A DNA stretch of 64,000 bases from Salminus brasiliensis (lineage: Eukaryota > Chordata > Actinopteri > Characiformes > Bryconidae), in assembly GCF_030463535.1 (NCBI RefSeq), contig NC_132881.1, forward strand, positions 40,955,973 to 41,019,972. Direction: 5' to 3'. The position numbers and the translations under genes were made by a program. The notes beneath the pieces are model-generated. The model made no database searches. It had not been told where the DNA came from and was given only the letters and a program-made list of their open reading frames with translations. Positions 33,401 through 39,400 of the stretch are shown piece by piece. Each line of letters begins with the position of its first letter. Positions within the stretch are counted from its first letter, which is position 1.

Positions 33401-36400
33401 TCTCATAATAATTCAGGGCCACATTTTTCACTTTTCTTAGTATACTTCAGTATGCATCCATCCTCCTTCTTACTACATTCATATGTCCTGGTCCTTTGAC
33501 ACAGTGTACTCTTCATGAAAGGGTTCAATCTAGTACTGAAAATGGTTTTAAAGGGGGAAAAAAAGAAGGAGGAGCAAATTAGAAAGACAGAAGCCCTCTC
33601 GCTTCACACTGGCAGCTGCTGCGTTCGTTTCTACGGACTATTACTTAATGAAGAGGCTCTCTTCCTTGTTTATAGCTCTTCTGGGCTCTCTCTCTTTTTT
33701 TCCTTAAAGCCTCATAAAACTACCTGCTAGAGGTTCTCCACCAATCCAAAAGGGTTCAATTTGTCATGGTTTGATAGGGTCATTGCCTTTACTGAAGCAC
33801 CCATATATACAGATTGATCATATCTGCACCTAGTTAAACCCTAGCCCTAAACATACTAACCCTAATCTTACCTCAACCTAGCTGCAACCTCTGTATCCTA
33901 CACATAAACCTAACCCTATCAGACCATTAAACCCAGAAGCCTAAACTTAATCCTAACCCTACAATCAACCTCAGTAACCAAAGGTTGATCTTTCTGCCCC
34001 AAAAACTTTGAATGTGTGTTGACATTATTTGTCATGTTGTCCTGTCATTATAGAGACATCTGGTTCTTACAGGGACAGTAATACAAGAACACACACAGCG
34101 TGCAAATCATTCTGACTTCAGTCACTCATCCAGTGCCGCAGAGGCTGCGTTTTGGCACTTGGCCTGTTGGTATGGATGAATAAGAGGGTTTGTGTTCTTG
34201 CCTGCAGTAACACTAGCTGGCCTGCTGCCTGCTGTGACGGATCCTACAGCTTCTCTGCTGGTGCGGGTGAATTTCTCAGGTGTGTGTGTGTGTGTGTGTG
34301 TGTGTGTGAATGTGTATGTGTGCGCGCTAGACTGGTCTGAGATCAGGTTATTGCTGATCTTTAGGAAGATTTTGTATGATTATCTGCTATGTTGTGTGTG
34401 TGCAGGGATCAGCCATAACATTAAAAAACACCTGCCTAACATTGTATAGGTCTCCCTCGTGCCTCCAAAACAGAACCAACTCATCGAGTCATGAACTCCA
34501 CAAGACCTCTGAAGATGTGCTGTGGTATCTGGTACCAAGACATTAGCAGCAGATCCTTTTAAAACTTGCATGTTGTGAGGTGGAGCCTCATCAATGACCC
34601 TGTCGCTGGTGGTTGTTCCAACCCTTGACAGGTGCCTCTGCAATGAGAAAATCAATGTTCTCCGCCTGTTTTAATAATATGGCTAGGATAGTTGGTTGGA
34701 TAAGCAGTCAGATTTACAGTCAACAATCAAAGAGTCAAAACAGTGAATGATCAGGGAGCGAGTGGGTTTTTTCACTGTTCAGAAAACATGAAGGGTTGAA
34801 GCTGAACCCTGTCTAACTGCAGCGGTGAGAGACTGAAGCCTGCTGCTTCACACAGCAGAGCAAGAGATCTAGGAACATGCTCTATGCCTCTCTCTTTCTC
34901 CCTCATGCACAGGAGGGATTTTCATTTTTAGGCTCTCTCTCCCTCTCTTGCCCTTTTTCTCTCTCATCAAAGGCTGACAGCTGACTCCTGCCCTCATACA
35001 TCAGAGGCCGCGGTCGGGGCAGCAAGAGTACGGCTGAAGCCCCGACTGGAACAGCTCTTCCTTTCATTCCTAAGAATGAGCAGTGTCCTCCAGAGCTCCC
35101 CTACCGCCAACACTTTCCCACACTGCCCCTAGACAGCCACACACACACACACACACACACACACACACACACACACACACACACACACACACACACACAC
35201 ACACACACACACACACACACACACACACACACACACACACACACACCTCAAATCCCTCAGCAGCCACACCCAGCTTTAGGGCAAACCAACAGAAAACCGG
35301 CCGCTTCAGCAAACTCCCTAGAACCCAGCTCTGTAACTGACCAGAACTTTCAACATTACTCATCAATATTAATTTACTATTATACATGGACCAGTCAAAA
35401 CATTATCACCACCTGCGTAATACTAGGTACCACCTAGTATCACCACCTGCGTAATACCAGCTCTGACCCCTTCAGGCACGGACTCCAAAAGACCTCTGAA
35501 GATACCACAGGGCACCTTTGTGGTCTTTTGGAGTCTTTCGAGTCCTCCAGTTGCTTAGATCTTTGTTATGTTTCAATTTGTGCTCAACTATCCAAAGATG
35601 GCAAATGGGCTCAGATTCTAAAGCCTGGCCACATGTTCTGCTCCCAACACCAATCACAACAAAGAGCTGACTGTTCACCTGCTGCCCAAAATGCAACACT
35701 TATACCCCTTAACAGGTGCTCAGCAATCAGTGGTTTTAATGTTATGGCTGACTGCTGTATAGCCATAAATGGACCAGCTTACCCGTCGCCGCTCACTTTA
35801 TTTCTATTATAGCTCCTAAATCATTCAAAGCTCTATCTGTGCTTTGACTACGGAAGCCATATCGCCCCCTACAATTCCTCTTGTGTACTGCAGTCTGTCA
35901 AAATTTCATCAATTTCATAATTGGGGGGGTGGACTGCTCTGCTATAGCTAAAGATAAAACTGCTCTGCTATAGCTAAAGAGCTGCTTTGTATATCTTAAA
36001 GCATATCTGACATCAACTTTGGTATTGTGTCCACAATAACAATAGTGTGTGTGTTGAGTATTTCAGTACACCTTGTTCTAGAATATGGGCACAAGTCTAT
36101 AGAACCCAATACCGAGGCTCAGGTTCAACATGACTCCAAAAGAGTCCTCAGTACAACAGCCCAATGATACACCTCTATTCTCAAGCCTACGACAAACACA
36201 CAGCAGCAAGAGGGAAAAGCTTGGAAGATGTGGGAGTGTGTCCCTAAACTGATGAAGATGGTGATGATGATCTCAAAGCCTGCAAATCAGAGAGCTTAGA
36301 CCCACAAAGGCCCCACAGGAGTGCCAAAGACCTACAAAGCTCAAACAGACAGGGAAGATGGAGATGTAGTGTGATGTGTTGAACATATATAGACTTATTT

Positions 36401-39400
36401 CTACATAGCAGAACAAGAATGATCCAGAAAGTTAATGAAGAGAGAGAGAGAGAAAGAGAGAGAGAGGAAGCGTCTCCGGTTGTCATTTCCGGGTCAAGGT
36501 GGCAAATATTTGAAGGCAAAAAAGGGGGGCGGTCTGTCTTCGACTTCAAAGGCTCATTTAAAAACATTTAATCCAGAATACCTCCAACTTCTGCTCCAAA
36601 AACAATAAGAGCAGTGTTGCTTTAATGACGAGAGCCATGAATTTGCTCCCCATGCAAAAACAAAACTCCAGCACAGAAAAAAATTAAAATAAGGAAGTTT
36701 ACATTAAATGTAAATTGATGCGCGCCATTATAAACAGCCGTGCGCCGTTCCTCGGAGAGCTGGAAGGCGGATAACAGAAATAGACAAATAAGTTCATTTA
36801 AAAGATGTTTTCTGGAGTCTACGCTAAGCTAACCTCAATCCAGCTCTTGGGATCTGCATAAATTGAGGGCTTTCAGGGTAGCAGCAGTATTCTCGGTATT
36901 ATGCATATTAGTTTAAGGCTGTCACAATGAATCAGCAAGGGTGTCCATCCCCCGTCTGCTCTGCACTGCTAATTATTGGATCAGAGATAGACTGCTTTTC
37001 CTCGCCAGCGGCCCCCGAGCCCGGGAAGGAAGAAAAGACGAGGAGAAAAAGCTCTCCAATTTGGGTTCAGAGAGAGCCACAGGGTCGCGAATCGATCGAC
37101 CATAAAACCTTTGTCTGCTTGCTTTCGTCTCGTCCGCCGAGCAGATTTGTCACATCTGCGTGGCTTTTCTCCGCAGAAAGGGGAAGCGGAATAACAGGAT
37201 GCAGTGACTCTTTAAACTGGGGGGGGAAAAAGAGAGGAAGGAGGAGGAAATTAGGAAGACAGAAGCCCTCTCGCTTCACACTGGCAGCTGCTGCGTTCGT
37301 TTCTACGGACTATTACTTAATGAAGAGGCTCTCTTCCTTGTTTATAGCTCTCCTTGGCTCTCTCTCTTTTTTCCTAAAAGCCTCATGGTGGCCAGTCTCC
37401 CCGCTACGGTGCGAAAAGCCAAGCGCAAGCAGAAACTGCTGGCAAGGCCGCCGTTCATTCATGGTGTCGGTCCGATTACACATGGGGGCCATATGGGTGA
37501 ATGGTAGGAGAGGGCTTACATCTGGCCTGGCTCTTTTTAAAAGCAGCCCAATCACAACACACTCTCCTAACACAGCTCGGCTGTGCGGCCAGGCCTCAGC
37601 AGTGTGTGTTCTAGATCCATGCTAAAGAATTAACAAAGCAAAAAAGAGAGAAAAGAGAAAATGGGAAGAAAAGGAATTTGGGAAGAACCATGGGCGTAAT
37701 AGAGGGTAAGAACGTTGCTTATGTATATTCATTAAAAAAAAAAAAAAAAAACAACTAAGATTCATTAAGCAATGCAATATAATAATAATAATAATAATAA
37801 TAATAAATAAATAAATAATAAAAAAAAGAGATGACTGATGATGTACAGATGTACAACGGCAAATAACCTTTAAAAGCTTTACTGGATATAAGAAGTTCTT
37901 CACCAGTTTACAGAACCGTCACACTCACATTTCTATTGCAAATATGGTTCTAAATGGAACCTGAAGTGGTTCTTAAATGGCCCAAGTCTTCAAATCTGGA
38001 CCTTGAAATCAGTTTCCAGTCCTGGATGTTGTTCTCGCTGGAAGTTAAGGGAACAGTTAACGTAATTGATGGGCTACTTAGTGTCACACCTACCACGGGT
38101 TATGAAGTCCAGGACTGGAAACTGGATTCAAGGTCCACCACCATCTGGATTATTAAGATTTTCCCATTAGAAGCAGTGATTATGGACCTTTTTTCAGAGC
38201 TTATGCTGCATTTCATTTACCTCAGAAGTCAAACGTCAGGGCGGAAATTGATGTTCCACCAGAGTTGAGTTTAACTGGTATTTAAACTGAAGTATTTAGC
38301 TTTATTTAGTATTTAAGTGTTTTTGAAAATGACAGTGTACCATAAATGGTTTGACAATCCTTTACCGGTGTTTTATGGCGAAACTAACCAAAGTATGCTT
38401 CATTTTTATGTCCCCGGTCAGCACTGCTAGCATTGTTAGAGGTTGATGGCATATTATATGGTATTTTGCGCATTTAAACACCATGGAAAACTCATAGAAG
38501 ATAGAAGTAGGATAGTATCGAGTGTATGATGATTTAATGGGACACAGATGGGTAAAAGTGCTAATGAAATCTATAATACTACTGCTTTTATTACTGTTAA
38601 GGTGTGGTGCAGCCAGCTTTGAGCTCTGGATTGATGAAGCTCCCTGGATTTTGAGAGTACAAAATTCATAGTGAAGACATTACAGTTACTTGGAACTCAG
38701 AAAAATTGGCATCCCAGTTCAAATGGAACGCAGCATTGGTCATAGTGTGATTTCTTAATGCATTTCATTTTACTCAACACGTCTATTTAAGCGTTCTTCC
38801 AGTTTGCCTTGGCCTCCTCTTCTCAGCTTTCCAGCTCTATTCCCACAACACTGATGTGAGATCCTGCTACTGACAAACTCAGGAAAACTGTGGTCCTGTG
38901 TGCAACCATAAACAAACATTAATTAGGTTTAATCTAACTTAAAGTTTGAGATAGTCAAAGAACTACCATGTTGGCTATAGCTTGGACGCCAGGAACTGTC
39001 AGAGGAAAAGCTCTTAGTGTTTATAATGGAGCAGCTTTAAAGAAGAAACACTGTCTGGGTATCAGATAATCTAACAGATGATCCGATGTAAAATGTTTTG
39101 CTTTTCAAAGAATGAACGACACAAGAACACCAGCAACATCCTGCGCAGTGATACAACAGAGATGTGATCAAAGAGGATAAAGAGTCAGTGGCAGTAAGGG
39201 CAATTGGTTAACATCATAAATAAGTAGTCCAGCTCTTTTGAAATTCACTGTACATTGGACAGAACAGGCTAAATTAGGACACACTACCATATGGTAAAAC
39301 ATGATAAAACAAAACAGTGAATTATTTAGAGATCATTGCAAAAACTTTGTATCTCCACATAATGTGTCTGACAGTTGTTGACATCTTCAGAAAACTCTAT

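What the first reader, a model, noticed from the sequence alone, without database searches (positions are those of the whole stretch)
33547..37386. 94-bp perfectly identical duplication 3.7 kb apart inside lef1 intron 11
Copies at 33586-33679 and 37258-37351 are identical over 94 bp, and similarity extends to about 170 bp (33547-33715 and 37211-37386). The sequence is complex, not transposon-like, and has no TIRs. Copy B sits in a longer region that looks regulatory. Either a very recent local duplication copied part of an enhancer, or both copies are under strong constraint. A duplicated Wnt-effector enhancer would be biologically interesting.
Basis: partly seen in the sequence, partly recalled or inferred. 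Interest (0 to 1): 0.7.

Follow-up and report, generated by a model that had tools for sequence, protein, structure and literature searches.

The report
Locally copied DNA in lef1's intron
A stretch of about 170 bases of non-coding DNA in the last intron of a fish lef1 gene occurs twice, 3.7 kb apart, most likely because a DNA break was once patched with a copy of nearby sequence; such events are already known, and whether either copy regulates the gene is untested.

Summary
The identical run is 96 bp (33584-33679 = 37256-37351), inside a block with 156 of 166 columns identical. It lies in lef1's last intron (27403-40380, minus-strand gene). Searches of the 1.07-Gb genome find only these two copies, even allowing 3 mismatches in a 33-base core, so no repeat family was found. 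No significant similarity continues beyond the block.

Copy A, not copy B, is flanked by a 12-bp direct repeat (33518-33529, 33749-33760). With unmatched stretches of 17 and 33 nt inside it, no poly(A) tail, about 170 bp length and 3.7 kb spacing, this fits published 'repair-mediated duplications' (PMC2671141): B was copied into a break at A. In 200 kb of control sequence, one of ten local pairs could be checked for copy number, and it too has just two copies.

The differences cluster outside the core (p about 0.009; 0.04 for substitutions only), which hints at constraint or gene conversion but proves neither. No other fish sequence was available, so 'enhancer' is untested. It is a new example of a known kind.

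The parts
33547..33715 (+). Copy A, the likely acceptor (derived) copy
   Evidence: 94% identical to B over 166 columns; shared TTTAAA at its left end
37211..37386 (+). Copy B, the likely donor copy
   Evidence: same alignment; the 1.2 kb around it (36480-37700) has no genome match other than itself and copy A
33584..33679 (+). Identical core in copy A, 96 bp
37256..37351 (+). Identical core in copy B, 96 bp
33518..33529 (+). Left member of a 12-bp direct repeat flanking copy A (possible target-site duplication)
33749..33760 (+). Right member of the 12-bp direct repeat
33530..33546 (+). Unmatched 17 nt between the left repeat and the block (possible filler)
   Evidence: no match beyond short words in the window and 20 sampled stretches (queried as 33530-33552)
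33716..33748 (+). Unmatched 33 nt between the block and the right repeat (possible filler)
27403..40380 (-). lef1 intron 11, which holds both copies
40381..40421 (-). lef1 exon 11, with the stop codon at 40389-40387
27301..27402 (-). Beginning of lef1 exon 12 (end of the exon not determined)

Best explanation
Copy A is a repair-mediated duplication. A double-strand break near 33.53 kb in intron 11 was repaired by synthesis copied from B, 3.7 kb away (synthesis-dependent strand annealing), which inserted about 170 bp of B together with short filler and duplicated 12 bp of the target. Shown: two copies only, abrupt block ends, a flanking 12-bp repeat at A and not at B, no poly(A) tail, size and spacing. 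Inferred: the break, the strand-annealing route and the direction B to A. As for function, copy A most likely began as a passive duplicate; that B, and hence A, works as a regulatory element is a guess.
For: Only two copies found in the genome. No significant similarity beyond the block: for 60-bp flanks, 198 of 1625 null places score at least as high as the left flank and 1369 of 1625 as high as the right; longer flanks are no better. A 12-bp direct repeat flanks A, while B's flanks share only a 7-mer. Non-simple repeats of 12 or more in that geometry occur at 0.56% of 20,000 random places in the window, a figure that includes places at A itself, and at 0 of 4,200 intron places with narrower flanks, A excluded. 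Published repair-mediated duplications with a donor within 5 kb: mean 162 bp, maximum 619 bp; 39 of 39 inspected cases without a poly(A/T) tract; microhomology 2-9 nt, filler 1-68 nt, TSD 4-21 nt; also found in zebrafish (PMC2671141 sections 6, 7 and 12). The shared TTTAAA at the left junction could be microhomology (by eye).
Against: The empty ancestral site was not seen, because no related genome is held. The flanks of A are not one interrupted transposon: one search shows only partial repeat matches on either side. The 12-bp repeat was noticed after the fact. TSDs are a minority in the published proximal cases (6 of 39). The two filler stretches have no identified source. An 80-bp left-flank comparison gave a weak, roughly colinear alignment (p = 0.11), which would speak for a once longer duplication if real.
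Confidence: 0.62

Rival explanations
1. Old duplication with both cores constrained: the duplication is old, flanking homology has decayed, and selection (for example on a doubled enhancer) has kept the core identical in both copies.
For: All 8 differences lie outside the 96-bp core (p = 0.009; 0.04 for substitutions only). The region round B is single-copy apart from A.
Against: Edges are still about 91% alike and then similarity stops with no decaying zone that tests as significant. Conservation in other species is unknown.
Confidence: 0.15
2. Gene conversion keeps the cores identical: A arose by insertion, the copies drifted, and a later conversion tract of about 100 bp made the centre identical again.
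For: An identical central tract flanked by diverged edges on both sides; the copies are near each other and in the same orientation.
Against: Not needed if the clustering is chance (4% for substitutions only) or selection; no test available here tells conversion from constraint.
Confidence: 0.2
3. LINE-mediated insertion of a reverse-transcribed RNA from the B region, leaving the 12-bp repeat as a target-site duplication.
For: 12-bp flanking repeat.
Against: No poly(A) or poly(T) tract at either end of 33530-33748 (by eye). In the published set 17 of 29 distant insertions had such a tract and none of 39 proximal ones (PMC2671141 section 7).
Confidence: 0.08
4. Assembly artefact: one copy does not exist in the animal.
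For: Raw reads could not be checked.
Against: The copies differ at 6 bases and 2 indels and sit in unrelated flanks, which a collapsed or duplicated assembly of one locus would not give.
Confidence: 0.02

Closest known systems
Repair-mediated duplications (Pace, Sen, Batzer and Feschotte 2009, PMC2671141; outline with abstract, passages, sections 6, 7 and 12 seen)
   Same: Two copies, within 5 kb, about 160-170 bp, no poly(A), a TSD-sized flanking repeat and filler-sized stretches. Published donors include conserved segments (82 of 824; passage).
   Different: No empty site is available here, and the acceptor is not inside a recognised transposon, which is how that study found its cases.
Templated sequence insertion polymorphisms (PMC5110952; search listing only)
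   Same: An insertion templated from another genomic place.
   Different: Described as templated from a distant region; here the likely source is 3.7 kb away, and polymorphism is unknown.
Duplicated (paralogous) conserved non-coding elements of vertebrates and teleosts (PMC11034925; passages)
   Same: Duplicate non-coding sequence at a developmental gene; lef1 is named in a gene table there.
   Different: Those described arise by whole-genome duplication and sit in paralogous loci; here both copies are in one intron and conservation is untested.

Membership tests
[quoted passage not shown]
   (the tool skips very common words)
repair-mediated duplication | donor within 5 kb but more than 50 bp away | tested here: met
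   3,672 bp start to start
repair-mediated duplication | at least 50 bp, within the published size range | tested here: met
   about 165-170 bp; published proximal mean 162, maximum 619
repair-mediated duplication | no added poly(A/T) tract | tested here: met
   by eye at both ends of 33530-33748; the A run inside the block has a counterpart in B
repair-mediated duplication | microhomology, filler, deletion or TSD at the breakpoints | tested here: inconclusive
   12-bp flanking repeat and unmatched stretches found, but not confirmed against an empty site
repair-mediated duplication | pre-insertion empty site in a relative, or an interrupted transposon | tested here: inconclusive
   no relatives are held for this genome; flanks of A are not one interrupted repeat
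conserved non-coding element / enhancer | conservation in other vertebrates | not testable with these tools
   no vertebrate collection offered; exact core sub-patterns were absent from the prokaryote and viral collections, which says little
conserved non-coding element / enhancer | regulatory activity or open chromatin | not testable with these tools
   no functional data
structured RNA | match to an RNA family or unusually stable fold | tested here: not met
   33000-38000: one sub-threshold Rfam match, 21.3 bits against 50, outside the copies; core folds z = -0.91 (+) and 0.33 (-)
protein-coding exon | match to a protein domain family | tested here: not met
   0 Pfam families for two open frames through B; other frames not tested

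The most novel reading that the evidence does not exclude
A break-repair patch copied the core of a working lef1 enhancer into the same intron and selection has since kept both 96-bp cores identical: a locally born second ('shadow') enhancer, or a doubled intronic signal acting on the exon 11 splicing choice, still carrying its birth scar.
Probability: 0.15. Interest if true: 0.55.

Novelty: new member of a known kind. Interest (0 to 1): 0.27.

Why it matters
If the copied piece is regulatory, this is an example of how a developmental gene can gain a second copy of an element without a transposon or a genome duplication. [quoted passage not shown] PMC11276968, passage), so a retained duplicate of a constrained element would be notable. 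If it is not regulatory, it is one more repair scar.

Tried and rejected
Repeat family: not supported. Empty site inside a transposon around A: 53 matches, of which two are A itself and B; the rest lie at about 33209-33363, 33824-33982 and 34023-34097, none bridging the insertion. Homology beyond the block: not significant. Structured RNA or coding exon: no support. Gene ending before the pair: I first took the stop codon near 40387 for the end of lef1, then found the donor after it and exon 12 at 27402. Literature: 8 of 10 paper searches used; none of the listed titles and abstract openings describes this element. One search (lef1 enhancer / intron / locus phrases, at least 3 of 5 terms) found 0 papers, and one search listed mostly unrelated 'DCNet' papers.

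Base-rate control: 20 stretches of 10 kb. Ten self-pairs of at least 80 bp and 90% identity (with a 3-mer filter) in 7 of 20 stretches: 7 direct and 3 inverted; two of the ten also matched other sampled stretches, and four lay in two stretches (L015, L017) with many self-matches. Genome copy number was obtained for 1 of the ten: L005 1971/2251 has 2 copies. L014, L022 and L012 were asked and not answered; the rest were not asked. An earlier run of the control read one stretch only and was replaced.

Full report
What is there. Two direct copies lie 3,672 bp apart. The block is 33553-33715 against 37222-37386, 156 of 166 columns identical, with 6 mismatches and 4 gap columns; a shared TTTAAA takes it to 33547 and 37211. 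Inside it 96 bp are identical (33584-33679, 37256-37351).

Where it is. The window lies on contig C4 of a 1.07-Gb genome in 103 contigs. lef1 runs on the minus strand: HMG-box exons at 45661-45545 and 44875-44765, a basic-tail exon from 41319, exon 11 at 40421-40381 with the stop codon and then a GTAAGG donor, and exon 12 from 27402. Exon 10 into exon 11 reads ...[19 protein letters not shown]; exon 10 into exon 12 reads ...[34 protein letters not shown]. This is the mouse arrangement, in which inclusion of exon 11 brings an early stop and its exclusion gives the longer protein (PMC3825142, passages). That these tails resemble the mammalian LEF1 tails is recalled.

How many copies. Copy A finds 2 places in the genome; the 1.2 kb round B finds itself and A; a 33-base core pattern with up to 3 mismatches finds 2, with 0 for the reversed control. 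The tool warns that very common words are skipped. Exact sub-patterns of the core were absent from the prokaryote and viral collections, which says little.

How it arose. Beyond the block no significant similarity remains: for 60-bp flanks 198 of 1625 null places score at least as high as the left flank and 1369 of 1625 as high as the right, and longer flanks do no better. An 80-bp left-flank test gave p = 0.11 with a loosely colinear alignment, too weak to build on. Edges still about 91% alike (60 of 66 aligned bases) that stop abruptly suggest insertion of a discrete piece rather than an eroded long duplication. Copy A is bracketed by AAAGGGTTCAAT at 33518-33529 and 33749-33760, the only two places of that word in the window, while B's flanks share only a 7-mer. 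In the same geometry, repeats of 12 or more occur at 1.69% of 20,000 random places in the window and at 0.56% after a complexity filter, both figures including places at A itself; with narrower flanks and A left out, they occur at 0 of 4,200 intron places. The repeat was noticed after the fact, so these are guides. Between the repeats and the block, 17 nt on the left and 33 nt on the right match only words of up to 14 nt in the window and the 20 sampled stretches. No poly(A) tail is seen.

Comparison. This is the picture published for repair-mediated duplications: of 1,136 human cases 824 had the donor within 5 kb, with mean length 162 bp and maximum 619; 39 of 39 inspected proximal cases lacked a poly(A/T) tract; 6 of those 39 had a TSD; size ranges are TSD 4-21 nt, filler 1-68 nt, microhomology 2-9 nt; 80 cases were found in zebrafish (PMC2671141 sections 6, 7 and 12). 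Donors include 82 of 824 with a full conserved segment (passage). Length, spacing, copy number and lack of a tail were tested and met; the breakpoint signs remain provisional without an empty site.

How ordinary it is. In 20 stretches of 10 kb from this genome, ten self-pairs of at least 80 bp and 90% identity occur in 7 stretches, some of them dispersed repeats or arrays. One direct pair (98 bp, 97%, 280 bp apart) has just two copies in the genome. The copy number of the other nine is unknown: three were asked without an answer. So short local two-copy duplications exist elsewhere in this genome, though that one is shorter and closer together than this pair; the base rate is not established.

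Constraint or not. The eight differences (6 substitutions, 2 indels) all lie in the edges. If they fell at random, a clean run of 94 or more would appear with probability 0.009, or 0.04 for substitutions only. This is suggestive. Selection on both cores, gene conversion, or mutable purine/pyrimidine edges all fit. In a scan of recalled consensus words, which are short and unspecific, the core holds CAGCTG, two overlapping TAAT words, overlapping FOX-like and CDX-like words and ETS-like and RBPJ-like words, but no LEF/TCF word. It has no RNA fold beyond chance; Rfam gives nothing near threshold in 33-38 kb; two open frames through B have no Pfam match.

Verdict. A real two-copy local duplication, most likely a repair-mediated insertion copied from B to A. 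Its regulatory role is unproven, and the kind of event is known.

Noticed in passing
window 40381-40421 and 27301-27402 (minus strand): The alternative exon 11 of lef1 (early stop) and exon 12 with a longer open tail are both present in this fish, with a 13-kb intron between them.
   Followed up: yes
window 52737-53121: Tandem array with self-matches at 60-bp steps, 83-90% alike, open in several frames, next to the lef1 exon at 52627-52394.
   Followed up: no
window 1601-1932, 22505-22681, 28213-28564, 45849-46107, 50886-51254, 60431-60663, 61663-61889: A dispersed repeat family in both orientations, about 68-84% alike between these places; not named.
   Followed up: no
window 7430-7507 and 10051-10127: Another local pair, 78 bp at 93.6%, by the cytochrome P450-like frames; genome copy number not checked.
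   Followed up: no
window 13387-14289: Long simple-repeat tract that gives open frames of up to 300 aa on both strands.
   Followed up: no
window 36912-37625: A 237-aa open frame runs through copy B on the plus strand; no Pfam match, probably chance.
   Followed up: partly
L005:1971-2068 and 2251-2347: A second local duplication with just two copies in this genome, 280 bp apart.
   Followed up: partly
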